From positions 2,480,001 to 2,544,000 of the forward strand of contig OZ017752.1 of the NCBI GenBank assembly GCA_963969365.1: DNA of 64,000 bases, in the 5' to 3' direction. This document shows, piece by piece, positions 2,593-61,468 of this stretch (positions are counted from its first letter, which is position 1; the number at the start of each line of letters is the position of its first letter). The notes beneath the pieces were generated by a model that saw nothing but the letters and a program-made list of their open reading frames with translations, searched no databases and was not told the origin of the DNA. The stretch comes from Asterochloris sp. CNOR1 (taxonomy: Eukaryota > Chlorophyta > Trebouxiophyceae > Trebouxiales > Trebouxiaceae). A program made the translations under genes and the position numbers.

Positions 2593-5500
2593 TCAAGGCT
2601 GCAGGGCTTTGCTGGACCCTGTGCGGCGGCGCTGCGCCATTTGCTGTCGGGCGATGAGTGCTGACTTACGCGCCTTAAGGGCTGATGCCTGCTGTGCAGT
2701 CTTGTCCTTCTGCTGCGCTTCCAGCTCTGCATCCCGCTGCTTTCGTGTCTCGTCAACCTCTGCAGGGCGCAGGACCGCAAGCTCTTATGAGGCAGCCTGA
2801 GCTGCAACACCTCAGACCTGGAACAGCCAGAGCCCCTAAAGTAGCTCTGGCAATGCGGAGCTTGCAGCTGTAGTCAAGCCCAAGCATGCCTACGTTGCCA
2901 GAGGAGCTGCAAGATATCCACATGCTCACACGGACACTGCACATCACAAAGAGCAGCCGTCACTTGCAAGCTTTCACCAACGACTTGCGCAGTCTTTGCC
3001 CTCTACGGTCTGGGCACACCTCTCTCGGCATACTGCTGCTTGGCAGCATCAAAGTGGCGCTTGGCATCAGGAGGCTTGGGAGGGAACACCTGCTCGCAGA
3101 GGCCCTGCCACTCTGCCAGAGCTGCAGCAGGGGTGGCACCGGCTGCGCCCCCACGGGGACGCCCGATGTCACGGAAGCGGTCTGCTCCCCCTGGGACCAC
3201 CAGCGACTGCAGGTGGTCAGTTTGGCACTCCATGCGCAGGGCCCTGGAGGAATGGCATGGATGTCAGGATGTGTGGCAGTGCATGCTTGGTGCAGCGCTC
3301 TGGGCTGCAGGAGGTTGCTGGGTCCACACAATGTCCTGCAGGCCTGCAGGCGCAGCACGTGGCCTGTCATGCTGTAGTCTGGCCCCAGGAGCATCAGCAG
3401 GGACTGCAGATGGTCTGGCCGGCACTGTTTGCGCAGTGCCCTGGGTCAGAACATGCAGGTGGCCCTGTGTCTGCAGAGAACACTGGCGCCCTGCAGGCAT
3501 GGCCTGCAGGTGGCGCCCTCTGCTGTGCAGTGCACACATATGAAGGGGTCCCATTTGGGGCTGCAGGCAGTCTGCTCGGCAGTCCCACCCCTGCCCGCAG
3601 GTAGCGCCTCGATTAGTCAGGCACATTGTCATCACCAGCACCGCACTCAGCACCCACATGCGCTTGTCCAGCCCCGTGAAGACCAGGTGGTTCAGCATGG
3701 CTCTAAAGTTGGCCAGCAGGGCCTTGTCTGCGGCACCCTCCTTGTGGATGGCGGCGCCGCCTGCCAGGCCCCCGAGAAACACCAGCGAGGCTCCGTGACT
3801 GTGGGCCACATGGCGGAGCGAGCAGGCCAGGACCTTGCGCACCTGCGGGCATGGCAGAGGCAGGGCTGAGGGGACTGTTGGTTGCCAGCAGGTGGCAGCC
3901 GTCGGGTGGCAGAAGCCCGTTCCTGTGTGTGCATGTCAGAGGTTGCTGGGAGCAAGCCAGGCCCCTGCACACCTGCAGGCATGGCCAGGGACACCACCTT
4001 CCAGTGGAGGCAGCCCTGATGGCACAAGCTTGTCCCAGAGGGCCAGCCTGCAGCCATAGAGGACTGGTTGCCACGCAGGCTGCCCTTTTTGAGCAAATGC
4101 CGGCAGAAGCGAAGGCCCTTGGGGCTTGGCCGCTGGCGCAGGGAGAGAGTCAGCACCTTGCACGCCTGCAGCCCGGCCACCGCCAGGACCCTGCAATTGG
4201 GCGGCCGCTGCCACTTGAAGGAATGGCATGTGTGTGTGCACAGCGCTGGTGCCTGGCAGCAGCGCACTCAAGCAAGACAGGGTGTCTGCCTGGCGGCAGG
4301 CATACAAATTGTGCTACTACTCTACCTCTGCATCGCTGCTCCGGAATGTGTCGTCCTTCAGTGCCGCGATGACGATGGCCACACCTGCACGGCAGCCAGG
4401 CCGCAGCTTCAGGTGACCACCAGCCTTGCACTTGCCGGTGCTGCTTGATAAAGCGCAACTTTGTTGCCGAGGACAGTCTGGCTTTGGGAACTGGCAGAGC
4501 AAGGGACTGCAAAGTGGCTGCGAGCCTCACTTTCTGGCAAAGCAGAGCCTTTACAAATTGCAGCCACTATGCCAGTTTTCGACAGCTGCTGCGCAGTCTG
4601 TGGATTTGCTGACATGCCGCCATGCCTGCTTGTCCTGCTTTGCCGGCGTCACCAAAGCAGCGGCCCCTCACCAGTGTGCTGCACCAGATCTGCGTCATCA
4701 TGCTGGCTCCCAAAGTAGCGCCGCGCCCGCAGGCGCAGCTGCTCGGGCAGCTTGGACCCACGGCGCTCCAGCGAGGCATATGTGGCTGCCAGCTTCCGCT
4801 GCACCTGGTCCAGCCAGAACAGGACTGTTGGCAGCACCTCTGCTGGACGGCCCAGGTCGGCTGTGATGACGACTGTCGCTGTGGCTACCTGCAGGGCAGC
4901 AGAGGCTGCTCTGGGTGGGGAAGGCACCACTTCCAGCTGCTCTGCTGAGCGTCGCAAGGCGCCTACAACGACGCCCATCACTGTGGCTACTTGGAGAGCA
5001 GCATACTGGAGAGTGTGGTTCAAGCTGGCTGCAGCCATGCAGGGGCAAGTTGTGGCGCCGCGCCAATAATCAGCAAGGGGCCTAGGCTGCTTAGTTCAGC
5101 GCTGTGCCTGCTGTAACGCAGGACAAGGCAAGTAAAGAAGCCTCTGCAGAGCAAAATGTGAGATCATGGGGTGCAAGGGTGGGGACTGTGACAGAGGGCA
5201 GGACTGTCTGTCTGTGGTGATTTGTGCCAGCTGGCCCCTGCAGCTGAACAGCAGTCAGGCCACCTGTCAGGGCCTGCTGCTGCAGCACGGTGCAAGCCAC
5301 CCTGTGCTGTTGTGCTGTGCCCTGCCCTGCAGTGGCTCATGGAAGAGAGGGCTTTCCCCTGCACTGAGGGGTTCATGCCCCCGCTGCGCAGCCATGTGCT
5401 GACCTGCAGCGGCGTTGAGAGAGGCTGTCCCTGCGCAGTCAGGGCGGCCGGCAACCCTGTGCAGTCGCGCACTGACCTGCAGCGGCCCCAGGAAGAGGTG

Positions 5501-6144
5501 GTCTCCCTCCGCTATGAGGGCTGCAAGGTCCTGACTGCCTGAGATCTCCCAGATGTGGGCCAGGTCCTTCCTATCCAGGCTGGCAACGGACTGCTTGCGG
5601 GCAAAGGTGTACTCAGAGCCCTCTGTGGGCTTGGGGGTCTCGCTCTGCATGGCCGCACAAAGTCAGGATGGTTACATTGTGCAGGCAGGTGGACGTGAGA
5701 GGCTTGCAGTGCCTGCTACACGCAGCCAGGACCTCATGCCTGCTGCCTGATGGTGCAACCACACATGCGCAAGCACATCCTTGGGTGCCTGGCTTAGCAG
5801 ATGGCCGAGCCTGCAGACTTGTATGCACGAGCATGCATCTGTGCATGCCTTGTCTGGGTAGAGGAACCTGTTGAGGAGCGTGGTCTTGCCGCTGCCCCTG
5901 GCACCCACAAAGTACAAGAAGGACTCTGGCCGAACGTCTGCACGGCAGCCAGCAATGATAATCTCAGGCTGATGATCTGCACGGCAGCCAGTAGTGGCTC
6001 CAGTGACGTATTCATTCTGCATGAGTGCAGAAGCTGCATGCACAGCGCGCCTGGCTTTCTGGCTTCTGCTCTGGCCCGCTCAATCAGCTGGGCCCAGATG
6101 GATCCAGGAGTATAGATGCTGGGAACCCCAGCTGTTGAGCTCAT
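2593..6144 (-). CDS. DYNC2LI1: Cytoplasmic dynein 2 (IFT) light intermediate chain
   Basis: This encodes the GTPase-like light intermediate chain of the retrograde intraflagellar transport dynein (D1bLIC in Chlamydomonas). The start [15 protein letters not shown] at 6144 leads into an amphipathic segment. A P-loop exon ([20 protein letters not shown], about 5872-5950) follows. Next come the [14 protein letters not shown] and [11 protein letters not shown] segments typical of DLICs (about 5490-5650), and an exon reading [19 protein letters not shown] (upper edge 4888). Further exons are [13 protein letters not shown] (about 4330-4384), [19 protein letters not shown] (upper edge 3842) and [10 protein letters not shown] (3020-3206). 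A charged C-terminal helix is encoded by 2593-2759. The gene has many exons, and two of its donors appear to be GC rather than GT. Its introns are full of copies of exon edges (see repeats). The family call is firm. Dynein 2 rather than dynein 1 is favoured because green plants and algae keep only the IFT form. Confidence 0.88.
3377..4199 (-). repeat. DYNC2LI1: Exon-edge copies in dynein LIC introns
   Basis: Read on the minus strand, the true exon start GTGCGCAAGGTCCTGGCC (edge at 3842) recurs with its CAG acceptor at edges 3972 ([10 protein letters not shown]) and 4165 ([11 protein letters not shown]). The next exon's start (LVVPGGAD, edge 3206) recurs at edge 3403 as LLMLLGPD. Each copy carries a CTGCAG acceptor followed by a degraded version of the exon. 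Confidence 0.8.
4880..5000 (-). repeat. DYNC2LI1: Copy of dynein LIC exon start, acceptor lost
   Basis: The exon beginning GTAGCCACAGCGACAGTC (edge 4888) is echoed 102 bp upstream in the intron (edge 4990) as GTAGCCACAGTGATGGGC, followed by a matching run ending in CAGCAGAG. The copy has CTCCAA in place of the CTGCAG acceptor, so it has lost its splice site. Confidence 0.8.
5937..5991 (-). repeat. DYNC2LI1: Duplicated 3' splice-site module
   Basis: A 16-bp sequence containing the acceptor CTGGCTGCCGTGCAG occurs at 5937-5952 and again at 5976-5991, 39 bp apart. The downstream copy (in gene direction) is the acceptor of the P-loop exon. The same 15-mer occurs a third time at 4385-4399 as the acceptor of another exon in this gene. 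Confidence 0.85.
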
Positions 6145-6750
6145 TGCTGATCAAAGCTGGCATTTGTGCATCCAGTGAGATCAGCTTGAGAAGCTTACAA
6201 GTGCGGTATGGGCGGCATGCAACTGTCAACGATGCACGTTTGACTGCTCGCTCTCCGGCGGTCTCAAAGCTTATCAGCGCAGCCTGCTCACCAGCCCCTG
6301 ATCCGACATGGGCTTGACCTCAGACAGCAGACGCTATGAGATGGACCCGGCAAGCCTTTACACTGCTTTGCAGGTGGACCACTGCACGGCAAAGCTGTGG
6401 TCTGGCATGCTGCTTGAGGACCACAAAGCCTGTGACGTGCAGCCCCGCATGATCATCACCGGGATTCACAGCCTCTGCCTGTGAGCTCCCCAGCCAAAAT
6501 GGATTCTATATGGCTGCCTGACAAACAGCAGGGTCGCAAGGGTCTTGCAAAGTCTGCTGCGTGCAGTGTTCTGTTGCTCCGCACGCTTCAAGGGTGTGCA
6601 AGGTGCAGGGCACCCAAATGGGGAATGTCCTGAGATGCAGGGGGTTTCAGAGTGTGTCTGATGTTGATCAAGTCAAGCAACGTTGTGGCCCGAGCTGACT
6701 GGCAGAGTGAGCCATGCCTGACGTCAAATAGGACACCTGCCTTATTGCAG
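6145..6750. other. Spacer between two minus-strand genes
   Basis: About 600 bp separate the makorin stop (6751) from the dynein LIC start (6144). It should hold the makorin 3' UTR and the dynein promoter. A minus-strand TGTAA (TTACA on the plus strand) at about 6357-6361 could be the makorin poly(A) signal. No gene is seen. Confidence 0.5.
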
Positions 6751-9700
6751 TCAGCGCAGCGTCCGCAAAGCCTGAACAGCTGATGGCATGTCGAAGAAGT
6801 CACTGAGCATGCTCTTGCGCATGATTTTGACATCCTCGTCCCCGCCTGCCAGGTGCCGCAGCTTGGTCGGCTCCTGCATGCAGATTCTGTGTGCTGCCCA
6901 TTCCACTAAGTCACTCACGTAGTAATCTGCATCGAGGCACGGCTGAATGGTGGCAAACACAATGATGACAAGGAAGCAACAGCACGGAAGCAGGATGGGA
7001 TTGTCATGCTGCACACAGGAACTCCTGCCCCCCAAACCTGCACTGGTAAGCCAATGCCACGCCAGTGAGATGTAAGTGCTTTGAGCTGATCAAAGATGCA
7101 CAATCCTGCAGCCAGGACATGTAGCGCACCTCAAGGGACCCATCCCGGTAGGCGTGCTTGTAGAAGCAGCTGGTACCAAAGGGGCAACGGCCCTCGCCAG
7201 AGTCAAAATGCCGGCAGTCAATGGTCTTCAGGCGCGTCTTGTAGGCTTCAATGATGCGCAGCCGCTCAGCCTGATTGCTGGGCCACACACTACTGGGAGT
7301 GACGAACCAGGATGCCTGGCGGCACACAGGGCAGGTACGCACAGCCTGCAGGGTCAGAAGTCACGAGGCAGTCAGGAGCAGAGTTTGCAGCGGGACTTTG
7401 TTTGGAAGCGCAGTGCCTTGAAAGGCAGCCAGCAGATGGGACGCTGCACCTTGTAAGGCGCCCCCCCTGCACAGAAGTGGCAAAGGTGAATGTGCAGTAC
7501 TTGGCTGAACATGCATGCTAACTGCCTATGATGCCACCAGGATCGGGACATCACATCTGCCAGGCACATGACAGGGCTGAGGACCATCTGCACAATTTTC
7601 TGGGGCATGCCTGAGCCTGCACCACAAGGATCCCACCTCATGTCGTCCAGAACAGGCCCCACTGTCTGATTGCAGGAGGTGGCAAAAAAGCAGCTCCTCT
7701 TCCCCTTGAGTCCTATTTGTGGCAGGATCAGTCAGACTTATCAGCTCACGATTCCAGGTCTGCCCCGCCATCCAATGGAGAGCGCCACCCACAGATGCAA
7801 GCCAGGCAGAATGGGTGTCCGTTGGCCAGCAGGCCACAACTAAATTTGGCTTTGCCTCTCCAGTCCTGTACCACCATCTGTCTGGGAGGACCACCTAGAG
7901 ATGCACTCAAGGCAGAGCAGGCCAGCAGTACCAGACACAACAAAGATCATGTATGGATCAGCCCTGCCTTCCATATAAGATTCCACCTGTGAATGCAGGC
8001 CTAGCAGAGGAACTCAATGGCCAGAGACTGTGATGGCCCACACTGTCCAGGCGCCACGCCCTCCCTGGCAGGGTACGTCTCACATGGGCAGCTCAGGCGG
8101 CCCAGACCCCTGATCATGGCCCCCCCTCAGACAGGCACCCTCCGCTCACATTATCAATGTCTGCCCCACCATCCGTGTGGGAGCGCCACCCACGGATGCA
8201 GGCAAGGCAGAAGGGGTGCTCGCAGGCGAGCAGGCCAAAGCGTCGCTCCCCCGGGCGCAGCTTCCCCATCACGCGCTCGTAGCAGATGCCGCACTCCACC
8301 TCCTGGCTGGCCGCAATAGAGGCCAGCCTGGCGTGGCGGCCCTGACAGTCTGCTGTGTGGGCTACGCTGGCCTCCTCGCTGTAGGGGTGCAGGGCAAAGC
8401 GCCCGCAGACCTGCACAGGGAAGGGGAGGTTGGCGCCATGGCTTCTGCCTGGGAGCGCTGAACTGCTCCCTGGCAGAGTGGCCGCTGACTGGCTTGCACC
8501 TGGCCCCCCATGGCGCTGCCCGTGCAGCAGACAGGAAGCGGCGCTGATGGCTGCCTCTGCTGCAACAGCATGCATGCTGTGCTAGGCTGCCTCTGCAAGC
8601 CTCAGCAGCACCTGCTGGCTGTCATCCCATGCAGGTCGAGCTAAAGCTTTCCTCAGGCTTTCAGCAACTGACAGCAATGGCTTCAACAGCACAGCTTTGC
8701 AAAGGCAGTCAGCCTGCCCACCTGACAAAGAAGTCCATGCACCAACGGGCACCTCTGTCCCCGTGCGCACTGCCCAGAGGACTGGAACTGCCCGCACAGC
8801 GGGCGCTCAGCCAGCTCTGCTGGATCCAGCTCAGGCGACGCCGATGGCTGAGCAAAGCCGTCTAGGGCATCCTGCTCCTCATTGGGGGTGCTGCTGCTGA
8901 AGCCCAGGGCCTGCAGATCATCGGCCGCCTCATCTGCAGCTGCAGCAGCATCTGCCTGCTCCCACCAGCTGTTGCCGCTCCCGCTGGGCTCGGCAGCTTC
9001 TGTGCCAGGCCCCCGCTGTTGCCAGTGCTTGTAGTATTCGCTGCAGGGAGCAGATTATTCCTGCTCAGGACAGAGCCTGACTGCTGCAAGGAGATGGGCG
9101 GGCAGGCAGGCATGCAGCACCATGTGCATGAGCTGCTGGGTACAGCTGTCAAGTGCCTGCCAGGGCTGATGTGCTTCAGGGACCCCTTGAGAGCAATTGG
9201 CAGCAGGCAATGTAGGAGCCTCTGTCCACAGGAGGCCGCGTGCATGTTGACCCAGAGTGGCTCAGGGATGAAAGCAGGCAGGATGCAGCAGTATGTGTAG
9301 GAGTTCCTGTCTGCTGGGCCAGGCATTTGGGCGGGCAGCATGCAGCAGCGGGAGCATGAGCTGCTGGCTGCCGGGGGCAGGCGCCTACCCGCTGCACATG
9401 CCACATGTTTGAGAGGAAGCACTCTGCAGCATGCTGTGTAGCGCCTGTAGTGCCACCGCAGGTGTTGGAGCTCACCTGCACTGTTTGTTCCATACTTCCC
9501 ACTCCTCTGGCGTGTACTGCTCTCTGCAACAGCCAAGGGAGCCTGTCTGAGTGGCTTGCTTCTACAATCTTGCACTGTGAATCAAGCACTGGTTCAAGCT
9601 GTGTCCCCTGGAGCATCTGGTGCAGAGATAGCTGCATCACCTATGAGAAGGCTCAAATCCAGCAGCCTTGTATGCAGCTCATCTGGCTGGGTTTCACTAC

Positions 9701-11224
9701 CTCTACCATTCCACTCAATTTCCAGGTGCACATCCCAGGCCGGAGCACCCAGCACAGGCTGCCCTTACAGCCCAGCAGGCTGAGCACCTGGCTGCGCAGG
9801 GCGCCATCTGCACTGCCTCTCATGAGCAGCGCGCTCTCAGGCTTGGCACCTCAAGCACAGGCCGCACCGCAGCCCAGAGTTCACACCCATCCATCATGCT
9901 GGTCTTCTGGTGCACCAGCACCATGAGCAGCCCACCTGCTCTGTCTCTCTAGCTCCACTCGTAACTCAGGCACGTCACCCCAGCGCAAAACCTTATGTTC
10001 GACATACTGCACACCCAGCTCGCCTGCATTGCCTCTGCTCTAACCCTGCAATCAGATTGTGCCAGTGCTAGACCCCAACCACAAGCTACCTTCATGTGCC
10101 CCACATGCAAGGTGCATGACATTTGCAGCTCGCCTAGACTGCTGCTCAGCATTTGCCTGTTCCTCAAGACATGGCCCTGGCCAGCCCCCCTGCATGAGCT
10201 GGTCATCCTGCCGCCCACCATGCACTCAAATGCTGCTCACCTGCACTGCCTCTCATACTCGGCCCATTCCTCTGGAGTGTACTCCTGCCCATAACCTTCC
10301 TCGCCCCAGGTGCCCTCCAGCTGCTCGCTGTGCCCGTTCTGTTCCGGCTTCTGGGCCGCAGAGGCCGCAGCAGCTGTTGAGTATGTAGGGGCTTGAGGCC
10401 CACATGCGTCCGAGCCAGAGGTGGCCACTGTGGCAGCCTCGCCAGGCTGCTCGCCCCTCAGAGCCAGGCGCTGCATGGGCTCAGCAGGCTGCCTGCTGCT
10501 GGTGGCTGCGTTTGTGGCTGGCTTGGGGACGGCCAGTGGCGGCACTACAGTCCTGCAGACATGCTGGAGAGGGCTGAGATTGTGCAGGTACAGCATCAGC
10601 CCAGGGCAATGACCTCTGCACAGCCTGGCAGGGTCTGCTGCCCAGTGTGAGGAAGGCTTCTGCTGCAGCGATACAGCTGTATGCAGGCTTACAAGAGGAG
10701 TACAGAAGGCTTCACCTGGGTTGCTGTTTGGGAGCATAAGTGGTGCGCACATGATCATAACGGCAGTTTGCCCCATAGCTGCAGTGCCCCGCAAGCCAAT
10801 ATTTGCAGACCTGGGGGGCATGGAAAGGGTGTGGTGTGAGAGAGCTGGTGTGACATGCTAGGGGATGCAAATGCCATCAGTAGGCAGCTGGGATGCCACT
10901 GTAAGCCATTGCTGCTGCAGCGAAAGGCAGTCAGCAAGGCAGACATGAGCAACACAGCAATGGCTGGCATTTCCTGTGAGGGCTCACCATGCTTTGGGGC
11001 TTGGACAGGTCATGGCTGAATGGGCAGCTGGTACCTCTGTTGCAGGCCCCATGCATGTGGTAGCGGCAGAGGACATCCTTGGTGGACCTGCCAGCACACA
11101 GCATAGAATTGATTTGCAGCACTTCTCTTGTGCACTGCGGCATAGCATTGGAGCAACCATACCCCTCTGCCATATGTCTCTTCCTCTGCTCCTCCTCCTG
11201 TGTGTCACCGAATGAAAGTGTCAC
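6751..11224 (-). CDS. MKRN: Makorin-type RING E3 ubiquitin ligase
   Basis: The domain order is that of makorins. The first CCCH zinc finger is VLCRYHMHGACNRGTSCPFSH (about 11000-11070), followed by a second (VCKYWLAGHCSYGANCRYDH, about 10745-10805). A long Ala/Gln-rich linker leads to a third CCCH (LCGQFQSSGQCARGQRCPLVH, about 8725-8800) and a Cys-His segment (VCGRFALHPYSEEA). The C3HC4 RING starts CGICYERV (8162-8330) and finishes RTCPVCR in the next exon. A fourth CCCH (CRHFDSGEGRCPFGTSCFYKH) and a conserved tail follow, with TGA at 6751. All RING ligands are present, so it should be an active ligase that may also bind RNA. The first coding exon is uncertain: a CAG acceptor just before STKDVLC suggests a tiny upstream exon, so 11224 is only the nearest in-frame ATG. 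Confidence 0.93.
7750..8330 (-). repeat. MKRN: Makorin RING exon and its decayed copy
   Basis: The true RING exon (about 8162-8330) is followed in the next intron by a decayed copy at about 7756-7890. The copy reads FSCGLLANGHPFCLACICGWRS where the true exon reads FGLLACEHPFCLACIRGWRS. It keeps a GTGAGC donor but has lost the first CxxC of the RING. It is therefore a pseudo-exon, not a usable alternative RING. Confidence 0.85.
9471..10290 (-). repeat. MKRN: Makorin linker exon end copied in downstream intron
   Basis: The end of the linker exon with its donor (plus-strand CTCACCTGCACTGCCTCTC, about 10236-10290) recurs at 9471-9525 (CTCACCTGCACTGTTTGTT, then CCTCTGGCGTGTACTGCTC against CCTCTGGAGTGTACTCCTG). 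Shorter traces are at about 9800 and 10018. The copies keep the exon-donor order. Confidence 0.75.
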
Positions 11225-12968: not shown

Positions 12969-15900
12969 TCACTCGTCCATGGCAGCCTGGGTGGCTGCCT
13001 GGTCAGTCTTCTCTGCACTCGAGTCTCTGGAGATCCGTCGGGTGCCGCTTGTTGCTGGCTCCGGCTTGGCCTGAATGCGCTGTGTGGCACTGTCAGGGGC
13101 TGCCTGCTCCTCCTCACTGCTGGAGCTTAATCTTGCAGGGGCGCCAGCATAGGCCAGTTCCCGCCCTTCAGCTTCCTCGTTTGACTTGGCTTCCTCTTGG
13201 CCCTGGCTGCTCCCTACAGAGATGCTGCGGGTGCCGCCACTGGGCACCAGGGCGGCTGCCTTGCTGAGCACTGTCCCGGTATCCTCTGCAAAGGCCTGCA
13301 GTGCAGCATGGTCCAACTGCAAAGCTGCATGCACCAGCTGTGGGTTCTTGGCCTGCCACATCTGCATCCCAACGCAGGGATGCCAAGCACTTGCAGAGCT
13401 GCAAGATGCCACATAGCAATCAGGTGGGCTCCAGTGCTGAGACACCAATCAAGTGGGATCCAGTGCTAAGACACTGAGGCGTGGGCCTTGCCAGACACAC
13501 TGCCTTTGGCAAAGGCAGGCTCCTCGTACTTCAGCTGCTGATGAGACCGCCTCACCTCAGCACTCTCGTAGCCTGTCACAACAGACACAGCGGTTGTGAA
13601 GAGGCCAATGACGGCAATGAATTGCAGCGTCAAATGGTAGTCGTATAGGGTCCACCCCACCAATGCGATGCCAGCCACACTCAGCAGGATGTTGAAGGGA
13701 TCACTGCATCACATGGCTGTGGTCATGCCGGGCATGCAGGGCTGTAAAGTATAAGTGCTGCCTGCGTACTGGGTGTCAGGTGGCAATCGCATCATGGCCC
13801 CTGTTTGGCTCCCCGCAGAGTATAATGCCGCAGCTGATGGACTGTGCTGCTGTGAAGTGACCACAAAGGGGGCTGGGGCTGGAGAAGCCTGCCACACAGC
13901 GCTGTGTCTGTGGTGGACACGGCGCCAGGATGACTTTTCGCCAACAGCACTTGAGAGGAACATGTGCAGACGGCGGCCACAGCCCTCCTCCTCAGGCAGC
14001 TGCCAGCAAATGGACGGCGCATGCATCAGCAGACCCCAATGACTGGTAAGGGCAAGAGCAAGCTCCCCTTGCCAGGCATACCCTGTGCGCCAGGGGACCA
14101 CCCCAGGGCTAACCTCAACACCGGCATGCCCCGGGCTGTGCGACGGCAAAGCCGCTTGCCCAACTCAGCTTCGGACTGACCTCAACACGCCACTGGCTGT
14201 GCTGACTGCCACCTCAAGCTCATCCTCTAGGGTCTCAAAGATGGAGCTGCTGTACTCTGCCACCGAGGGGCGCACGCCCAGGCCATCCTGTGCCCAGGCC
14301 CTGAACCCACCCTGCAGACACAGGTGTAGGGCGCTGAAACACAGCACCATCACTGACACGAACCCCCCAGGCCAGTCTGCCCCCAGGCTCTGAACTCCAC
14401 CTGCAGGTGGAGGCACAAGGCACTAAGGTGCGGGATTACTGCTGATGCAGACGCACAGGCTTTGAAACCCTGCAGGCGCAGGCACAGGCACTCCGACACA
14501 TCACCATTGCTGAAGTGCGCTATCAGGATGGCCTGCACCTCAAAGCTGAGTGGCGCTCCAACCTGCAAAGCACTGTGCGCGCGTAGACACAGGGCAATGC
14601 AGCTGCAAGGACTGTACCTGTCGAGCAGAATATGTCTGGGAAGGCAAGGAAGCCCAGGACTGCTGCTGTGCTGCAGAGGCTGGGCAGCCTTGCAGCCAAC
14701 GTGCCTTGCTTGCATCACAATGTACCTGTGGCTATGGCCTCTGCCTGCCTGGCTGTCCACCTTCAGGACAAATGCAGGGAGCAATGTGCCCGCAGCAGCG
14801 CAGCGCGCGGCCCTATGGCCCACCAGAATGTGCCTGTGCTTGGTGACCTCCTCCACCTGGCTGGCCTTGCTTTACAGTGCAATGAGGAGAGCGCCTGCAG
14901 CATTGCAGCATGCAGCCCTGTTGTCTGCCAGGATGTGGCCATGCCCTGTGGCTCCTTCACAACTGCCGGGCTATTCTTCAGGACAATCGGAGGGAATGAC
15001 GTACCCTCAGCACGGTTGCACGCAGCCCTGTCGTCCGCCTGATGGTCTTCGCGAGCTCCCTGGCTAAAGCTCCCTCTGACTGGTCCATGACAATCACACG
15101 GGTGCGGAACTTGATCTGTGCAGGATGGAGGAGTGTCAGAGGTCAGCTTAACAAGCTCTGACCACAAGGCATTGCTGTGACGGAGGGGTTGTGGCACCAT
15201 CAATGCTCTATGATCGACCCAAAGCGTCATCTCTTGTGTTGCGCTCAACTAGACTGATCATGGTATTGCTCCATGCGGTGGCAATGGCACTGCCACATGC
15301 TGCATGGCAAGCATGACCTGCCAGCCAGAGCGCTGAATGACTGAGATACCTGAGAAGCAGCGTCATGAGCGCTGGACCAGACAGACAGAGGCACTGGCTG
15401 CTTCAGGAGACAAGCGCTGATCTCACCTGAGACAGACCCGCCACCTGAGCTGCCCAGACGCAGTAGAGCACATCATTGGGCTTCCTGATCTGGCGCCGCA
15501 ACCCTGGAGCCAGCTCGGGCAGCTGTAGGGACACAGCCTTGCTGCGAGCAGCCCGCTTCAGCTCTAGTGTGCCCTCCCGCAGACGCTGGTCGTCCGTCCT
15601 GCAGTACACGAACAATGACATTCAGAGCTTGCAAGGAGTTTCTGCCACCGGCTTGAGATGAAGGAAAGCTGTAGCTTAGCTCCTGATTCCTGTCCTGCAG
15701 CACATGGGCAAGTGCAGCCAGTGCTACGCCCGGCAGCCGGGGCCCCAGGTGTTGGAGGACAGTTTGCACCTCATGCCTAGCTAATCTTTCCCAATTTGAG
15801 GTACATGATCTAGCACTGCAGCTCCTTGTGAAGCACAGCTTCACATGAACAGCTTCACGTAATGGCCAACCAGAGACATGAGGCTCTGGCGCACATGCAT

Positions 15901-20432: not shown

Positions 20433-23400
20433 ATGCCAGGGAAGAGGAGGAGGGATGATGCCTCAAGCAATTCTGCTGAGGTTCACACCCCAGGAACACC
20501 AGCAGTGGGGTGAGAGGCCCCCTTGCTTTGCCATCCAGATCTGTTCGCAAAAGCCAGAGTCTGCCAAGCAAAAGCAACTCGGTCTCTGCAGGGAGGCCAA
20601 GCCAAATCCAGGCTCCATCATTAAGCTGATTGTGAATAACATCATGGTGCGTCTCCTAGCATGTGCCACACACCCAGGTCAGGTTGTAGGTCGTGTCGTG
20701 CTGTGCTTAAAAACATCTCCCTGCCCATGCAGACATACAGGCACGCAGTCATTGAGCCTGGTGCAAGATTGAATTTGGTGCTGGGGCCAAATGGTGAGCA
20801 ATGACGCCTCTTCGGCCCTTGGCGAAGAGCTACACTCTCTGTCAGAGCACCAACCGCGTGGCATGTGCAGGCACTGGGAAGAGCTCTTTTGTGTGTGCCA
20901 TCTGTGTGGGACTCGGCGGCAGCCTCAAGGTGGGCTCTGCCTTCGCTATGTTTCAGCTCCTTGACGTGAAGGGAGCCCCACAGTCTTAGGGAGCCACCAT
21001 GCGGTGCCGTGTTTGCAGCTCCTTGGGCGTGCTGACAATGTGACGGACTTCATCACGCGTGGGGAGAGCTGGGGCTCGACTGAGGTTAGCTGGCAGCCCG
21101 CAGCAGCTGCTGAGGCGCTGGTGCTGGCACCTATTGAGTCTCTGGTCGGCTTGCTACCAGCTGTGGTTGCTTCCTAAAGAGGTGGCAGCTGTCAACGGGG
21201 GGTCCCAACAAAGCTGCTGGCGCGATGGAGTGACCCTGTTGCAAGGTTTCATGCACAAGAGCTGCGGAAAGTGTGCAGCACCTGTAACGGTGTACCACCA
21301 CCTGTTGTACCATGTTGTGCAGATCCACATTGCTACAGAGGACCCCACTAGGCCAGATGTGGTGTATCGCAAGATCACAAACGACGGCCGCTCTGAGTGG
21401 AAGTTGAATGGTGAGCCTCATGTCTGACAACAATGTTCAATTTGTCTGCTCTTGTTTGGTGCCTGTGGACAGCCTCCATGCTGTATGTACACTGCCTGCT
21501 TGGGGCCAGTCTGCAAAGCATGCCGGGGTGCAGCCTTTCCTGACACTCCTGGCCTGCCCTGAAAGGGACGAGTGGCTGCAGAGACCCAACACAACCTGAG
21601 CCTGCAACTGAGCACCTTGCTGCAGAGTCAAGTCCAACACCTCAGCTTGCCTGCCCGCTTGCAGGGGCGCCGAGCAATCAGAAGCACGTCAAGGCCCGAG
21701 TGGAGGACAAGCACAATGTCCAGCTGGACAACCTGTGCCAGGTGGGCTGTGCTGCGCAAACAGCAGGTGCATGTTCATGAAGTGCTGGCAGTGGGATGTG
21801 TGCAAGGAAGCCTACTATGGGGGCTGTCGTACATATTGTAACTGCTGCTTGGGCAGCAGGGCTTGCATCTGCACATGCTGCTGCCCAGGCGTCTGTCCTC
21901 AAGGCAAACGCTGCCAAGACTATTCAGGGACACTAGCCATGTCTGTGGCTGTGCTTGTGCCTGCTGCACCTCAGGTCCCAGGAACTGAATGCCAAAGGCA
22001 GCAGCACCTGCCACGCGCTGCTGCTGAAGTTTTATTGTCCCACCCGCAGGTCATCTGCCAGGATGTCAGACTCACAAGCGATGCAAAGACAGCGGCCATA
22101 GTCATTTGTTGCTGACCAAGACATTTGTTGCTGACCAAGGGGCTTCTTGACAACCTCCTGCTGAGCAGAATCCACTGCATGCCTCTGCAGTTCATGCCTC
22201 AGGACAAGGTGGCCAGCTTTGCGGCCCTATCGCCCACAGACCTGCTGCTGGTCACACAGAAGTCCATCGGCACCCAGGAGCTGCTTCAGCTGCACCGGCA
22301 ACTGATTGACAACCGTTGCGAGGAGAAGGATGAAAGGAAGGCCAGTATGGGAGGTCGTTCAGGAGTCCCAATGACTGACTGCTGTTGGCATGCCCAGCAT
22401 GGCTGTGCCCCATGCCAGCCTGCGCTTTGCCGGGTCGAGCAGCTAGCAAGTCAGCATGGGCTTCATTTGAGCACAACCCCTGTGGTGGCATGCAGGACAT
22501 ACATTGCATGCTTGCGCTGAGCCCCAGTGACCAGCTTTGAGTCCAGGTGGCATGCAATAGGCGCCTTGCATGCTGAATGGACAGCAGTTGCCATGTAGAG
22601 TTGTTGTGCAGCAGGCACATGAACAGCTACACACATGGCTGCCCCTGGCTCTGCTTGCGGCAATTGCTTTGAGGGCAGACAAGCCTTGCCTTAGGGGCAA
22701 AGCCATGCTGGGCAGCCAGCAGTCTTGTGTGTGTGGCCATGCAGCCTCACAATATGCTTAGCATCAGCTTTTGCCAGATGCACAGCACTTGCGATCTGCA
22801 CAAAGTAGGCCTGCATGGGACACTGGGCGCTCTGCAGCTCTCTCACACACATCACATTCCAGAACTGGGCTGCACTGCAGGCCCTGGAGGTTGCGGAGAC
22901 AGAGCTGGCAGGCCAGAGGAAGCAGCAGGAAGGGCTGCAGAAGGATGTCAAGCGCTGGGAAGAGCGCAAGCAGAAGGAGGATGAGGTAGGACTGCTGCTC
23001 AGTATGCCCTGTGGCGCTGTCAGCAAGCTCTGATGGGGCTGCATGAGCCATCTGCCCTTCTGTGGCCTCCAGCTGACCAATCGTGAGGCCTGGATTGCGC
23101 AGAAGCTAGGCCTAGCACTTCAAGGCAAGGGGCCTTTGAGCACATTCACACGAAGCCGCTTTCTCACCTTGACCAGCATGGGACTGGGTCTTCCAAAAGG
23201 CTGCCCGAAGCAGTCAGTACACACTCCCTGATACCCAGCAGGCTAAGCAGGTCTGCAGCAATTCGGCCTGAATTGTGCTTGATAGCAGTGGGGCTCATCA
23301 GAGGCTGCAGTGAGGCTCTGGGTGCCGCACTGTGCCTGTCAAGAGATTACCTTACTGCTGCTGCAGCCATGCACCCTGCGTGCCTTGGCCCCGTGCAGGC

Positions 23401-35515: not shown

Positions 35516-35539
35516 TGTAATGAATGCCTGGAGATGTAA
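35516..35539 (+). terminator. SMC5: Two TGTAA poly(A) signals of SMC5
   Basis: TGTAA occurs at 35516-35520 and 35535-35539, 163 to 186 nt past the stop at 35353. This supports that stop as the real end of SMC5. Confidence 0.5.
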
Positions 35540-45200: not shown

Positions 45201-46940
45201 GTACTGATGGACGCAGGGGCTGAGTTCAGGCAAGTATGGCAGGTTAGTCAGGAGCTGCCTTCCCAACAGCAATCTCTGCCTCTACCCCTGCCTGTCAGCT
45301 CTGCTCCAGCACAAGGCATGCTGCACTGACAATCTGAGGCAACAGTGGCACCTGCTGCTGCTGGATGCCAGTCTCAACTTCAGGCAAGCGGCTGGGCTGC
45401 CTTATGAGGTGCAGCCCCTGCCTCTGCACTCAGTCCCTGTGGCGCCACATGAGATGTGGAGCTTGCCGTGGGTACTACATAGGCAGGGCCTGCCAGTTCA
45501 CTCCCTGACCAGGGGTCACGCAAATCCTTGCACCGGCATCCTGTAAGTTCAGCGTGCTGCTTAGCAGTGCTAAAGAGCGTCAGTCATCTTGTGTGCTGGC
45601 AGCTGCAAGTGCCGTCGAAGTCAGGTGGACCGCTGTGCAGGTGCCTGTCTGCGGACATCACCACAACATTCCCTGCGGGCAGCAAGTTCTCCTCCATGCA
45701 GCGGGACATCTATGGCGCCGTGCTGGAGATGCTGGTGAGTGCCGGCAGCCCTGCTTCTTTGGGCAGAGGTGCTTGCACATCGCCCTGCGGCTTGCTGCCG
45801 AGGCCTGCGTGCCTGAACAAGAGGAGGCTCCAGCCGAGGAGGCTCAAGCCTGCTGGTTAGGTGCCTGCAACCCGGCTTCCACAGGCAGGGCTGCTTGCAC
45901 ATGGAGCTCTGCGTTGTGGTGTTCAGGCCTGGATGCATGACCAAGAGGACGCCTCAGCATGCTGGGCAGGCGCCTGCAGCCATTGCTGATGTTGTGCCAG
46001 CAGCTTGCACATGGAGTGTCCCTTTTTGCTGTCCAAGCCTGCCACATGAGAATCCTGCTGCCACAGGCCGCTGCACAAGGTGTTCTCATTTCTGGCAGAG
46101 TCGCTGTCATGAAGGGGCCCCTGCTTATGCTCTGCAGGGCAGCTCAAGATGGCTCTACAAGCTGGCAAGCAGGGGCCGGTGCCCACACCTGCATGCGCAT
46201 CTGACGCCGTGAGGTGCCTCATGGCCCCTACCCCTGAGTGTTTCGTGGCGCCTGCCCTGCAGAGAAGCTCGATTGAGCTGTATAAGTCGGGCAAGCAGTG
46301 GCAGGAGCAGGTAGCCCTGCCCTCCAGGACGCGCCTGCTGCAGTTGTTGCTGGACCTGAGGCTGGTGCAGGGCTCCATGGACGAGCTGCTGGACAAGTCC
46401 ATTGACAGGGTGTTCATGCCCCACTCCCTGGGCCACTTCCTAGGTGAGGCACTGCAGCGTCCTGCATGGTGTCTTCCGTTTCAGCTGGAAGTCTGTCGGC
46501 TGGTGTCAGCATCTGCAGGCACGGGGCGAGCATGGGCACCGGCAGCGGCTGCATAGACTTGGTCTGTGATGCCCACCTCAGGCATGCGGCACCCCCGCCT
46601 TGTTCACACACGGGAAGCAATGTCCTGTGTTGCAGGGCTGGATGTGCATGATGTCAGCGAGAATGGCCCAGTGCCAGCCATGCTCAAACCTGGAAACTGT
46701 GTGACCTGTGAACCTGGCATCTACTTCAGCCCATCAGTAATTGACCCAGCGCTGGCAGACCCATCAAACAAGGGATTGTTGAACGTTGATAGACTAGCTC
46801 GCTTCACAGGGTTTGGCGGTGTGCGCCTTGAAGACAACATTGTCGTGCTGCAACATGGCAATCACAACCTCACTGGAGCTGTGCCCCGTGACATTGAGGC
46901 TGTAGAGAATGCTGCTCTAGGAAGTGCTTCTGCATTCTGA
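42203..46940 (+). CDS. PEPD: Xaa-Pro dipeptidase (prolidase)
   Basis: This M24 metallopeptidase cleaves dipeptides with C-terminal proline. Exons fitted by phase are 42203-42412, 42724-42799, 43023-43120, 43632-43797, 44551-44636, 44988-45229, 45641-45734, 46263-46443 and 46636-46940. The N-terminal domain reads FRPESNFFYLTG and VHEPGYACLIDTTDGHFTLL. The catalytic domain has both metal Asp residues (LVLMDAGAEF and SADITTTFP), the His (HSLGHFLGLDVHDV), and both Glu residues (TCEPGIYF and GVRLEDNIVV). All five ligands are therefore present. The intron after 45229 has a GC donor (AG|GCAAGT). The start is the first in-frame ATG before LRQQAAETRKKVVDQL; an upstream exon cannot be excluded. Confidence 0.95.
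43730..44130 (+). repeat. PEPD: Prolidase exon-end echoes
   Basis: The end of the exon (encoding YALPSGEKHAQQLTKQAGC, about 43738-43797) recurs at about 43868-43920 (GGCCCTGGCTTTAGACGATA, then AGCACGCTCAG) and at about 44058-44130 (GGCCCTGCCCTTTAGGGAGC, then GCAGGCAGCCTGTGGTGAGG). The second copy keeps a GGTGAGG donor and the following intron words. Confidence 0.85.
43911..44017. repeat. Long hairpin (46-bp inverted repeat, 15-bp loop)
   Basis: The arms 43911-43956 and 43972-44017 are inverted copies matching at 44 of 46 positions, around the loop TGGCAGGCTGCCATG. As RNA one mismatch can form a G-U pair. The hairpin sits in the fourth intron of prolidase, between two exon echoes. It may be a foldback (MITE-like) insertion or a small-RNA precursor. 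Confidence 0.88.
44478..44600 (+). repeat. PEPD: Echo of a prolidase exon start
   Basis: The exon at 44551 begins GCAGGCTGCACAAACCAGAG. About 70 bp upstream, 44481-44520 reads CCAGGCTGCACAAGCTGGGG and continues CTGCTCCAGCC, matching CTGCTCCAAGC in the exon. Confidence 0.8.
45740..46045 (+). repeat. PEPD: Intronic tandem repeat, three units
   Basis: Within the intron after 45734, units beginning TGCTTGCACAT recur at about 45768, 45890 and (as AGCTTGCACAT) 46003, so the period is 113-122 bp. Each holds a GCCTGxxTGC-like stretch and an AAGAGGA(G/C)GC block in the first two. They are too diverged to code. Confidence 0.7.
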
Positions 46941-47003
46941 GTCAGCCATTTCGAAACCGCCTGATCTCAATACCTGCATGCTGAACAGCACTTTTAGATG
47001 AAA

Positions 47004-47818: not shown

Positions 47819-48217
47819 CGCGAGCTGACCTAACGATGGCAGAGTCTCATCCCCATTTCATGAAACTCCCAGCTCCATTCTAGTAAGAGCACATGAGGGC
47901 CCTACGCTAGGTGCTGTAGATGACTGTGAAGGGCCATCAACTGACAAGGGGCAAATCCATCTGGCGGAGAGTTAATTACTGATGTCGATGGCTGCCAGAG
48001 GAAATGATGCAATGGTACTCAGCAGACTGTCAGGCGATCCATGGGACTAAGGCACCCCAGCTGTGGACCATGCTGACATCAGCTGTGTGCGCGCTCATCA
48101 TCATGACGCAATTTGTCTTCATGTTGTGCATACGCTGCTGCCACTAGCTACTGCTGATATGTAAGGCTTTCCTGCGCAGAGATTTGGGACAGCACATCAT
48201 TCTCCTCCCAAAGGTCT

Positions 48218-58300: not shown

Positions 58301-61300
58301 CCTGCGGATGGGCCCAGACAGTGGCAGTTGGCAGGGCAGCGCTGGCAATGCTCCTGCGCAATACCAGCAATCATCTGGCTCAGCTCAGAGGGCAGACTCT
58401 GACGTTGCGGTGCGGGACAGCAGCGTTGCCCCAGGACAGAGCCAGCAGCCGCCTGCCGCAGCTTCAGGCTTGAGGCAGCTGCCGCCGTCCTTGGGCGGAC
58501 CTGGGCCGGCAGCTCCCGGGACCACTATGCCGGGCAGGGTGGCACCTCGCCAGCAGCAGCCGCCAGCGTCAGGCGGGCTGACAGTGCGCCTGCGGTTGCC
58601 TGGCAGGGGGAGTCAGCCGCCGTCGCAGCCAATGTCAAGGCCAGCCTCAGCGGGGGTGCATCTGCCCACCTCTCCTGGCTCGCCTCAGGTATCTTGGGCA
58701 GTGCTTGTGCAGTGCTGTTGGGATTCCAGGATCAGCGCCGGCAGCGCTGGGGCTGCCAAGTTGTCCTAGCTTGCCTAGGCATGCTATGCTGTGCTTGTGC
58801 ACAGAAAAGGCGGTGGTTGTGGGATCTCAGGGACAGCGTATGCACCCTGCTACTGCCGAGCTCTCAATGGTCACCTCAGGCGTGCCGCTGGTTTTTGTGA
58901 AAGCTGACTTGGGACTGCGGTGCGGCTGAGGGCTGGTTTTCCGAGAGCCCTGCTGCAGGCTTCATCTGCTAAAATCTTTGGCTGGGCTCAGGCGTATGCA
59001 TTGTTCAGCTTAGGGGGACCTTGCGGTTGGCACATGGAAGAGCTGCAGCGCCCAGCCTCCTGACTCGCTTTCTCGATCACTGATGCGTTAGCAGGCATCA
59101 TGGCGCCTGCCTGGACTGAATCCTGGTCTCCAGCAGCAGGCATGGCATTACTGCATTAGTGAGCGCTGGCATCATGAGCTTTGCAGTGGCACGTGTGTGT
59201 AGAGGTCGATGGCCAGACCTGAGCTTTCTGCAGTGGCCCCAGGTTTGTGTCAACTCCAGGAGTTGTGCTTTCAGCCCAAAGTGGTCAGCTTTGCAGGCTG
59301 GGCTGACTCCTCAGCACAGCTCATGCAGTCCTCCTCTGTTGTTGCAGGCTTCGCATGGCTCCCTCCTGGGCAAGCGCAAGGCTGCTGAGGAGCCAGCCGA
59401 GACCACAAGCCCCTTCAATTCGCCTCCGCACATGCCCATTGTGCCCAACGGGGTCAGCCGGTCTCAGGTGTGGCAGCATTCTCCTGTGTCCAACACACCC
59501 CTGTGATCAGCCCCACACACGCTCACATTGCAAAGCAGGGTCAGCAGGTGTTGGGTGACCCAGCACGGCTTTGCACGCGACTGCTGCAATGGGCTGCTGT
59601 CATGGTAGCGCCCTCCTTGGCTGGGTCCCGCATGACCATGACCGCTGATGCTTCCTGGGTCCCTGCATCTCCCCCCATGTCCCACTGCCTGCCAGCAGGA
59701 CCAGGGTGCAGGGCTGGACACTGTGCCTGCCTGCCATGCAGGGGCCTGTCCCTGTCATGCCGGCCGGCCCCACTGCCTCCTCTGGCCTCAATCTCCCAGG
59801 CTCCGCCACGGCCCCTGGCGGCCTGGACCCGCCGGGCACAGGCACCAGCACAGCAGCCTTCAGCGGCCTGCTCATCCCCGGCATGCCCCGCTCCCCAGCC
59901 ATGCCCAATGGAGGCACACAGTCCTACAGCATGTACACAGGCCTGTATGGCAGCCAGGCGCCGCAGCAGCAGCAGCAGGCGCCAGCCATGCTGGGAGTGC
60001 GGCACCCAGCCACGCTGCCCGGGCAGGTCCCTGCCCAGAGCGCAGGCTGGGGCTCCTCCGGGCTGCAGATGCCCTTTGCATCCTTGGCGGCAGGCGCCTC
60101 CTCTGTTCCATTGTCATTGCCCTTTACTTCGGTGACAGCCGCCCCCGTGCAGGTGACTTTGTGGCTGTCTTGCCCTGAGCCTGGAGCTTGCCGCATCCTC
60201 TGTGCAGATCAGGGTCCTTTGCCCTGCAGCTGAAAGAGCGACATGCTGCATGCATTTCCAGTGTGGAATTGGACGATTCTTGGCCTTCCTTGCAGCTTAT
60301 GGCATCTGGTGGCTCACTGCACTGCCAGACACACAAAAGCGTCCAGCACATCCCCACGGTTGCTAGGCATGCCGTGCACAGTGTCTGGCACCAGCCCACG
60401 TCTGCTGTCTTTGCAGTACCAGCTGGCAGAGAGCTGACCGCAACAACAGTCATCTCCTACTTGGTTCATTTGGGGCTGCAGCCTCAGTGACATGTGGGCC
60501 CTGCTGCAGGTGCCCTTGACCCAGGTGCCTGCTGCCTCACTGCAGCTGCCAGGTGCTGCCCTGCAGCCGCCGCCAGCGTCAGTGCAGCTGCCCACAGGCC
60601 GCGGCAGCCCCCTTCAGATGCCCACAGGGTCCTCCGCTCCAACCCCCGGCGCCCAGCAGGGGGTGACGTACCCATACAACAGCCACCACCCCCAGCAGCA
60701 GCCTGTAATGCCCATGGGCCACCTGTCGCCGGCCAAGTCCCCTGGCCTCAAGCTGCCAGGGCAGCAACCTCAAGCAAACGGCAGCAGTGCTTGGGGCAGT
60801 GGAGTGTCTATTTCTGCACGTAAGCTGGCGCTGGCGTGACACTGTGGCTTGCCTGAGAGATTGAAGTGGGGCCAGCAACCCCAGATGGACGGCTGCAGTG
60901 CTTGGGGGCAGCGCCGCATGCATCTCGATGCATGAGCTGGTGCTTGCATGATGTGGTAAATTGCTTAAGACATGTAGGCCTGGGGAGATTCGGGGGCTGA
61001 AGCTCCAGGCTGAAAAGATCTGGGGGCTGATGCCCTAGGGAGGCAGCGCTTGGGGCCAGCTTTGCAACTACATGCAAAGCCTGTGCCTGACATCAGCATC
61101 CTGTTTTACTCAAAAGGCCAGGCCAAGCCAGGAACAGCCCTGACTGTAGAAGGCTGTTTGCATGGGCCACTGGTGTGCCTGTCTCTGCACACGAGCGGCT
61201 GATGGCCCACACCCTGCTTTGTCCTGTTTTGCATTGCCACATGTCCACTCTAGCTCTACAATGCTGCAAGCACCTCTTGTCGGGTGCAACCTGCCCCTCT

Positions 61301-61468
61301 GTACACGTCATCAGGCACCTGTGATCTGCAGGAATGTCTGACGCTGAGCGGGCAAGTGCCGTGCGGGAGCTGACCTCCAAAGCCCGACCTCATCTGACCA
61401 ACTCCCATGGAGTCCGGTTACCGGGCGCCACAGCTGACCAGGCCATCGATCTGTCAGACTCTGAATGA
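52388..61468 (+). CDS. SIZ1: SIZ1/PIAS-type SUMO E3 ligase with degenerate SP-RING
   Basis: The order is that of plant SIZ1. An N-terminal SAP domain (IKELQQCLDLLGLRKAGRKA, 52430-52540) is followed by a PHD exon (ECGVWQHCSCVGLAHADLPG, then WFCEQCRAALADPFW, 53853-53970). The PINIT domain reads VPFRFNWPRSSDLRINN and VGQMISSSGRNRVALA (54847-55070). Then comes the SP-RING region (about 55825-56077 plus 56537-56696). A Pro/Gln-rich tail carries two SUMO-interacting motifs: DIIVLDSSDDE (57906-57938) and AIDLSDSE at the very C-terminus (61442-61465). In the SP-RING the usual Cys/His ligands are replaced (SLRDP for SLRCP, GVKGVAAFD for the CKHxxCFD motif, WQCPHS for WxCPxC) while the surrounding residues are kept. 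Classic zinc-dependent ligase activity is doubtful. An intron at 56697-57034 has a GC donor (CAG|GCAAGT). Confidence 0.92.
55038..55262 (+). repeat. SIZ1: SIZ1 exon-end echoes
   Basis: The PINIT exon end (VALACIEEREPFCE, with TGTGAGTA donor, 55036-55076) recurs at 55222-55262 as GCGCTGGCATGCATCACGGA, then CTCCTGTGAGTT. A shorter piece is at about 55160-55182 (GAAGCTTCTGTGAGTAC). Donor-like GTGAG sequences are kept. Confidence 0.8.
60765..61085 (+). repeat. SIZ1: Three copies of a SIZ1 exon-donor junction
   Basis: The exon end GGCAGCAGTGCTTGGGGCAG with its GTAAGCTGG donor (about 60765-60830) is echoed at about 60870-60955 (GCCAGCAACCCCAGATGGAC, then CAGTGCTTGGGGGCAG, then ATGAGCTGG). A weaker copy is at about 61040-61085 (GGCAGCGCTTGGGGCCAG). 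Confidence 0.8.

What the first reader, a model, noticed from the sequence alone, without database searches (positions are those of the whole stretch)
2593..61468. Introns are built from decaying copies of their own exon edges ('exon echoes') in at least seven genes
In the dynein LIC, makorin, rhodanese-like, SMC5, xylulokinase, prolidase and SIZ1 genes, introns next to an exon hold one to four degraded tandem copies of that exon's edge plus its splice site. Copies of exon starts lie upstream with a CAG acceptor; copies of exon ends lie downstream with a GTGAG-type donor. Units are usually 70-200 bp apart and diverge with distance. This cannot be chance: translated copies keep residues (for example AKQVRSKVPWLELQQ against ANQVHSKVPCLKLQQ). 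It suggests introns grow by repeated local duplication across the exon-intron boundary, after which one splice site is kept and the rest decay. I know of no name for this as a genome-wide habit in algae.
Basis: partly seen in the sequence, partly recalled or inferred. Interest (0 to 1): 0.8.

Follow-up and report, generated by a model that had tools for sequence, protein, structure and literature searches.

The report
Old tandem copies at exon edges
In this lichen alga many introns hold worn-down copies of the neighbouring exon's edge, and these are best read as the visible part of an old wave of small local DNA duplications that introns absorbed without harm.

Summary
The window is Asterochloris, a lichen green alga. 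The core observation is real. Direct self-similarity at offsets of 60-260 bp is over 100 times that at 4-5 kb; mirror images give none, reverse complements 5-11% as much. It recurs in a second chromosome block. In two genes with supported exons, 11 of 70 inner exon edges have an intronic copy. Pairs of an edge-crossing and a wholly intronic copy are twice random expectation in both blocks (30 vs 14.4; 29 vs 14.2).

'Introns are built from' echoes is too strong: 93 of 411 introns of at least 100 bp carry a detectable copy. Identity does not fall with distance. Nearly all copies are old: 7 of 179 pairs reach 85% identity. A neutral model of random local tandem duplication, with exons constant and introns decaying, gives the edge excess if the duplications have one old age, so an exon-directed mechanism is possible but not needed. 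Echoes show no protein-level selection; four arrays tested had no dispersed copies; intron gain by duplication is not the main pattern.

The parts
23642..23787 (+). SMC5 exon 9 (source of start echoes and an end echo)
   Evidence: 100% match of transcript-like P0121
23481..23541 (+). echo of exon 9 start plus its acceptor (AG changed to AC); offset 145
   Evidence: 51/61 identical, z 16.1
23238..23288 (+). second echo of exon 9 start; offset 400
   Evidence: z 7.6, identity 0.75; three-copy alignment
23914..23967 (+). echo of exon 9 end and donor
   Evidence: 41/53 identical, z 10.8
24772..24977 (+). weak echo of exon 11 start region (exon from 25013); offset 108
   Evidence: identity 0.62, z 7.5
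26218..26292 (+). echo of SMC5 exon 12 end (exon to 26136) with GTGC donor
   Evidence: 46/63 identical, z 8.7
31315..31392 (+). echo of SMC5 exon 21 end (exon to 31261); donor lost
   Evidence: 56/81 identical, z 8.1
32100..32268 (+). SMC5 exon 22 (three echoes upstream of its start, two downstream of its end)
   Evidence: P0121 mapping
31544..31604 (+). most distant upstream echo of exon 22 start, paired with the echo at 31776
   Evidence: z 9.5; four-copy alignment
31777..31843 (+). upstream echo of exon 22 start with CTGCAG
   Evidence: 49/69 identical, z 9.2
31985..32032 (+). nearest upstream echo of exon 22 start
   Evidence: z 6.6; four-copy alignment
32324..32559 (+). two tandem echoes of exon 22 end (echo-echo identity 0.86 against 0.70 and 0.73 to the exon)
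   Evidence: z 19.6 and 8.5, alignment
36996..37125 (-). echo of xylulokinase exon 9 end (exon 37351-37116) with GTGGGC donor; overlapping array, unit 81
   Evidence: 61/86 identical; z 14.9, classed XX because the copies overlap the exon
39706..39781 (-). echo of xylulokinase exon 4 end region (exon 40045-39923)
   Evidence: z 7.7
3377..3513 (-). dynein-2 LIC-like gene: echo of the exon start at 3243
   Evidence: z 11.7, identity 0.65
3950..3993 (-). dynein-2 LIC-like gene: echo of acceptor plus exon start at 3842
   Evidence: identity 0.82, z 11.0; alignment, where the gene finder seems to have misread it as a donor
4934..5005 (-). dynein-2 LIC-like gene: echo of the exon start at 4888
   Evidence: identity 0.71, z 10.9
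5212..5448 (-). dynein-2 LIC-like gene: tandem echoes downstream of exon end 5477
   Evidence: z 7.1 and 10.7
7728..7945 (-). makorin-like gene: two echoes of 8127-8241 (exon end region; classed exon-intergenic because the gene model stops short)
   Evidence: identity 0.76, z 26.7; 0.71, z 11.9
9886..10049 (-). makorin-like gene: echo of exon end at 10241
   Evidence: z 10.9
9470..9521 (-). makorin-like gene: echo of the same exon end (copy 10235-10286), called as an exon by the gene finder
   Evidence: identity 0.80, z 13.8
14655..15052 (-). multi-copy array, unit about 109, touching predicted exon edge 15005
   Evidence: z 19.2 and 11.8; no other copy found in the genome
43713..44302 (+). 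aminopeptidase P gene: three-copy array (offsets 137, 190, 328)
   Evidence: z 7.0, 12.2, 14.1; no dispersed copy found
45730..46004 (+). aminopeptidase P gene: intronic tandem array, offset 121
   Evidence: z 15.1; no other copy found in the genome
46128..46182 (+). aminopeptidase P gene: echo of the exon start at 46263
   Evidence: identity 0.75, z 10.3
59493..59565 (+). SIZ1-like gene: echo of exon end 59467
   Evidence: z 8.7
60870..60985 (+). SIZ1-like gene: echo of exon end 60819
   Evidence: z 10.1
61127..61226 (+). SIZ1-like gene: second echo of exon end 60819
   Evidence: z 8.3

Best explanation
This is the worn remnant of a genome-wide wave of short local tandem duplications (units mostly 60-260 bp, mainly in direct orientation) in the Asterochloris lineage. 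A duplication that fell wholly in an intron or between genes was neutral. One that crossed a single exon edge was also neutral, because splicing to the copy that still adjoins the intact exon removes the other copy. One that fell inside an exon or took in a whole exon was mostly selected against. Afterwards the exon stayed nearly constant while all intronic copies decayed, so pairs with one exon-edge copy stay recognisable longest and look like 'exon echoes'. Shown: the duplications, their orientation, offsets, placement, high divergence and absence from the SMC5 transcript-like sequence. Inferred: neutrality, the age model, extension from two sampled chromosomes to the whole genome, and the molecular cause (repair of nearby nicks or breaks, or replication slippage).
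For: Local direct excess over 100-fold with mirror, far and bacterial controls. Replicated on two chromosomes. Intron-intron pairs 12 and 13 (13.0 and 11.9 expected) and intergenic pairs 7 and 14 (13.5 and 20.9 expected): not confined to exon edges. 33 of 78 and 38 of 101 pairs have aligned length >=0.8 of the offset. Simulated random duplications of a single age K=0.25-0.3 per neutral site give edge:intron ratios of 1.65-3.7, against 47:14 observed for offsets 60-260. Uniform ages give 1.25-1.46 and 26-33% of pairs above 85% identity in the first parameter set, while 7 of 179 reach 85%. Mismatches in exonic parts are nearly even over codon positions (0.256, 0.267, 0.275). For two exon starts the echoes resemble the exon more than each other, one near-tie excepted. 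P0121 uses no echo. Four of four arrays searched have no copy elsewhere.
Against: The age was fitted, not measured: the simulated ratio runs from 1.1 at K=0.15 to 8.7-9.7 at K=0.35, and broad age ranges give 1.77-2.02 (K 0.15-0.45) or 1.55-1.62 (K 0.1-0.6), at or below the lower limit of the observed ratio (edge share 0.645-0.868, i.e. about 1.8-6.6). The clock model predicts more mismatch in the intronic part of edge-crossing copies (0.28-0.30) than at codon positions 1-2 (0.19-0.23 at K 0.25-0.3); observed values are equal (0.265 against 0.256-0.275). Annotation noise could blur this, and the two supported genes alone (0.276 against 0.268) cannot decide. Exon-interior/intron pairs are rarer (12 against 59 edge pairs) than simulated. 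Some local inverted copies also exist, which pure tandem duplication does not give. In one search the reverse-complement control of flanking pairs gave 3 of 70 at z>=3 (0 of 70 at z>=4). Most gene models come from a gene finder trained on the sequence itself. No related genome was compared. An earlier, less corrected pair set showed no edge excess in C1 (15 vs 14.8).
Confidence: 0.65

Rival explanations
1. Exon-edge-directed duplication: a process tied to splice sites or transcription (for instance nicking at transcription bubbles or error-prone repair) copies edges preferentially and makes copies that are divergent from birth.
For: Edge pairs are twice random expectation in both blocks, 0 of 1000 shuffles reaching the observed count; mismatch is equal in exonic and intronic parts and nearly even over codon positions, as if the echo alone changed; few young copies; a neutral wave spread over a broad range of ages gives too low an edge ratio.
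Against: Intron-intron and intergenic pairs exist at densities of 0.16-0.27 per kb; a neutral wave of one old age gives the same edge ratio; an echo-only model without edge preference gives a ratio near 1, so it needs a preference that nothing else shows.
Confidence: 0.13
2. Echoes are functional pseudo-exons or alternative splice sites, kept for regulated or mutually exclusive splicing.
For: Acceptor echoes keep AG in 19 of 27 (13.3 expected); JGI holds two models of the xylulokinase locus with different exon starts.
Against: No clear codon-position bias of mismatches, and 181 of 182 alignment gaps within exonic parts have a length not divisible by three; donors keep GT in 9 of 23, 10.7 expected; the SMC5 transcript-like sequence includes none; TGCAG is abundant in introns and well retained in noncoding pairs.
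Confidence: 0.05
3. Intron gain by tandem genomic duplication (exonic AGGT copied, both copies used as splice sites): the introns themselves were born this way.
For: 4 of 390 introns have donor and acceptor flanks matching at >=36 of 80 bases against 0.51 in shuffles, 3 at >=40 against 0.02.
Against: The best of these is better read as an acceptor echo misjudged by the gene finder (my reading); the mean is not raised (22.66 against 22.49 +- 0.21); echoes lie at the end of the intron opposite to that which this model predicts. Single introns of this origin are not excluded.
Confidence: 0.05
4. Dispersed elements (introners or other transposons) or composition artefacts.
For: Introners are reported in diverse eukaryotes (PMC9860276, search listing only).
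Against: Four arrays were found only at their own place in the 56-Mb genome, with the caveat that the search skips very common words; mirror-image control zero.
Confidence: 0.02

Closest known systems
Tandem genomic duplication as a source of introns (reviewed in PMC3443670, passages read)
   Same: Short direct duplication inside a gene that splicing can remove without changing the protein
   Different: There the copied segment is exonic with AGGT and the new intron lies between the two copies. Here existing introns absorb copies of their own edges, and only 4 of 390 introns even resemble the former pattern
Tandem exon duplication and mutually exclusive exons (PMC6071210, passages read)
   Same: Duplication that takes in exon and flanking intron
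   Different: There whole exons are copied and used. Here mostly one edge is copied, and the copies show no coding constraint and no use in the one transcript-like sequence seen
[quoted passage not shown] 2016, seen only as a reference in PMC8153287; content recalled)
   Same: Direct, adjacent short duplications
   Different: Those are fresh laboratory events; here the copies are old and junctions have decayed
Minisatellites (recalled)
   Same: Head-to-tail arrays in part
   Different: Few copies, units of about 100-200 bp, strong divergence, single locus

Membership tests
Local tandem duplication | direct orientation, short distance | tested here: met
   reverse complements occur at 5-11% of the direct rate at score >=18
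Local tandem duplication | single locus, no dispersed copies | tested here: met
   4 of 4 arrays searched; the other arrays were not searched
Local tandem duplication | head-to-tail contiguity | tested here: inconclusive
   aligned length >=0.8 of offset in 33 of 78 and 38 of 101 pairs; the rest too decayed or not contiguous
Local tandem duplication | junction microhomology or filler showing the repair route | not testable with these tools
   nearly all copies differ by 15% or more, so junctions cannot be read
Intron gain by tandem genomic duplication | donor flank and acceptor flank of one intron are copies of each other | tested here: not met
   not met as a general pattern: 4 of 390 at >=36/80 (0.51 expected), 3 at >=40 (0.02 expected), mean unchanged; one search printed the best eight
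Mutually exclusive or alternative exons | copies under protein-level constraint | tested here: not met
   mismatch 0.256, 0.267, 0.275 at codon positions 1-3, about 1137 sites each, 71 pairs
Mutually exclusive or alternative exons | copies present in mRNAs | tested here: inconclusive
   absent from one SMC5 transcript-like protein, 1055 aa; no RNA-seq available
Introners | many introns of one sequence family across the genome | tested here: not met
   4 of 4 arrays searched had no copy elsewhere

The most novel reading that the evidence does not exclude
Exon edges are preferred sites of an error-prone local copying process linked to splicing or transcription, which in a past episode added intron sequence genome-wide and made copies already divergent at birth; the twofold edge excess and the even mismatch across exonic and intronic parts would be its signature.
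Probability: 0.1. Interest if true: 0.85.

Novelty: new variant of a known kind. Interest (0 to 1): 0.47.

Why it matters
Where intron sequence comes from is a long-standing question, and most intron DNA is too decayed to tell. This genome seems to keep a readable layer: exon edges act as fixed references against which neighbouring intron copies can be dated. If the one-age wave is right, a rough hand estimate from the detection rates and the counts is that 18-38% of present intron length came from it (inference, strongly model-dependent). The echoes can also mislead gene finders, which may call them exons or splice sites, as mine did at 9476-9523 and probably at 3972.

Tried and rejected
Composition artefact: rejected by mirror, far-offset and bacterial controls. 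Dispersed element: rejected for four arrays. Intron gain by duplication: rejected as the main pattern. Functional exons: no clear codon signal. Uniform-rate duplication: rejected by the lack of young pairs. 'Identity falls with distance': not found. In-frame preference of offsets between exonic copies: 4 of 8 and 2 of 9 divisible by three, none evident. Retention of acceptor AG looked meaningful until common 5-mers were checked in noncoding pairs. Substitution spectrum: Ti/Tv 0.79 exon to echo, 0.66 for intron-intron pairs, 0.38 in chance alignments: homology, nothing special. One search printed zeros because its program did not run; those numbers are void. In one search three of ten alignments are trivial self-matches of overlapping stretches and were ignored. 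One search used a weaker filter (score >=24, offset 60-700, low-complexity pairs dropped) and showed edge excess in the window only (IX 23 vs 11.4; C1 15 vs 14.8); the composition-corrected set shows it in both. Searches were malformed; one search crashed and was rerun.

Rows left out: predicted genes with less than 300 coding bases; pairs with offset under 40; comparisons with simulations use offsets 60-260 only, where 14 XX and 8 EI pairs were also seen; introns under 60 bp or with an exon under about 40 bp, leaving 390 introns; of 59 IX pairs 2 at gene ends were dropped, the other 57 giving 58 edges. The figure 11 of 70 edges is a hand count: it includes the xylulokinase edge at 37116, classed XX, and leaves out the SMC5 edge at 22191, whose partner is not in the adjacent intron. 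Confidence in the best explanation was lowered from 0.68 to 0.65 (and the directed rival raised from 0.12 to 0.13) on rereading, because broad-age simulations and the inverted excess had been left out.
Full report
WHAT THE SEQUENCE IS. The window is G000:C7:2480001-2544000 of a 56.38-Mb genome in 21 contigs. A predicted xylulokinase from it matches a JGI Asterochloris protein (P0001, 'Astpho2'). Mapped with a spliced aligner that I wrote, its ten exons match but for one residue among the codons counted. SMC5 matches P0121, a protein on a 3426-base contig, at 100% of counted codons in 27 exons spread over 14.9 kb. A 1055-residue frame on a contig that short must come from spliced RNA (inference), so it shows which SMC5 exons are used. 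Dynein light intermediate chain is supported by a match to dynein-2 LIC1 (E 2e-31). SP-RING and PHD fingers (SIZ1-like), an M24 peptidase domain, and CCCH fingers with a weak RING match (makorin-like) were found by Pfam.

WHERE THEY LIE. Exons came from the two supported genes and, elsewhere, from a self-trained gene finder whose splice consensus converged on AG|GTGAG and CTGCAG|G. Against random shifts, pairs of an edge-crossing copy and a wholly intronic copy are enriched: 30 observed, 14.4 expected in C7; 29 observed, 14.2 expected in C1; none of 1000 shuffles reached these. Intron-intron pairs are as expected (12 vs 13.0; 13 vs 11.9). Intergenic-intergenic pairs are fewer (7 vs 13.5; 14 vs 20.9), and so are pairs of two edge-crossing copies (8 vs 14.0; 12 vs 17.3). 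In SMC5 and xylulokinase, a separate test of every exon against every intron gave 5 of 70 flanking pairs at z>=3 against 12 of 1225 non-flanking pairs (Fisher p 0.0015). The reverse-complement control gave 3 of 70 at that level, so z>=3 is not clean. At z>=5 the counts are 3 of 70 against 1 of 1225 (p 0.0006), with 0 of 70 for the reverse complement. By the z>=6 pair list, eleven of their 70 inner exon edges have an echo (hand count). Of 58 echoed edges overall, 50 have the echo in the adjacent intron: 27 acceptors, 23 donors.

ANATOMY. The clearest case is SMC5 exon 22, with three echoes upstream of its start and two downstream of its end. The two downstream echoes are 86% alike, against 70% and 73% to the exon, so one was probably copied from the other later. 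For the starts of exons 9 and 22 the echoes resemble the exon more than each other, save that two far echoes of exon 22 are about as alike (0.54) as one is to the exon (0.53); this is the star shape expected if the exon stayed put. Copies run through the splice site into intron sequence, so they look like DNA-level duplications, not copies of mature RNA.

AGE AND SELECTION. Identities centre on 60-75%; 0 of 78 and 7 of 101 pairs reach 85%. Simulated duplications of uniform age would give 26-33% such pairs in the first parameter set. Loss of young copies cannot make young ones rarer than old ones at a constant birth rate, so the rate must have fallen, or copies were born divergent (inference). 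Mismatches in exonic parts are nearly even across codon positions (0.256, 0.267, 0.275) and equal to those in intronic parts (0.265), so echoes seem to evolve free of the protein code.

WHY EDGES STAND OUT. I simulated tandem duplications placed at random over the annotated introns and their flanks, rejected those that would reach past the flanking exon, and let introns drift with exons constrained. With a single age of K=0.25-0.3 substitutions per neutral site the detectable edge:intron ratio is 1.65-3.7, against 3.4 observed for offsets 60-260 (47:14, 95% interval of the edge share 0.65-0.87). So exon conservation plus one old age suffices. The age is fitted: younger ages give about 1.1-1.3, older ones above 8, and broad age ranges 1.55-2.02. 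The model also does not reproduce the equality of exonic and intronic mismatch. That leaves room for an edge-directed process, which I put at about one in ten.

LITERATURE. Nine searches of the open-licence PubMed Central library listed no paper that I recognised, from titles and abstract beginnings, as reporting decayed exon-edge copies as a genome-wide feature of an alga. Subscription papers and preprints were not covered. Related ideas are intron gain by tandem genomic duplication (PMC3443670, passages), duplication of exons with flanking introns (PMC6071210, passages), and tandem duplications after adjacent single-strand breaks in plants (Schiml et al. 2016, seen only as a reference in PMC8153287; the paper itself not held).

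VERDICT. A real feature, found on both chromosomes sampled and overstated in the finding, best explained as the visible remnant of old, general local duplication filtered by splicing and selection.

Noticed in passing
43908-44020: A 113-bp near-perfect hairpin (49-bp arms, 47 of 49 positions paired, predicted -113.8 kcal/mol) inside the three-copy array of the aminopeptidase P gene; no other copy found in the genome. It looks younger than the direct repeats around it; could be a small-RNA precursor or a fold-back duplication.
   Followed up: partly
18137-18319: In-frame 90-bp coding tandem duplication, 92% matches, in an Ala/Ser-rich predicted protein; one of few young duplications seen.
   Followed up: no
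window, 40 kb beside it, and C1 block: Predicted acceptors have a strong CTGCAG|G consensus with little polypyrimidine tract, yet TGCAG occurs 6.6 times per kb inside introns while CAGGTGAG occurs 0.01-0.02 times per kb.
   Followed up: partly
22191-22340 and 30032-30167: Two SMC5 exons appear to end at GC rather than GT donors in the mapping of the transcript-like protein.
   Followed up: no
21841-21969 with 22606-22723: Inverted repeat of about 130 bp, 69% identical, in two SMC5 introns on either side of exon 22191-22340; with the reverse-complement excess it suggests a minor class of local inverted copies.
   Followed up: no
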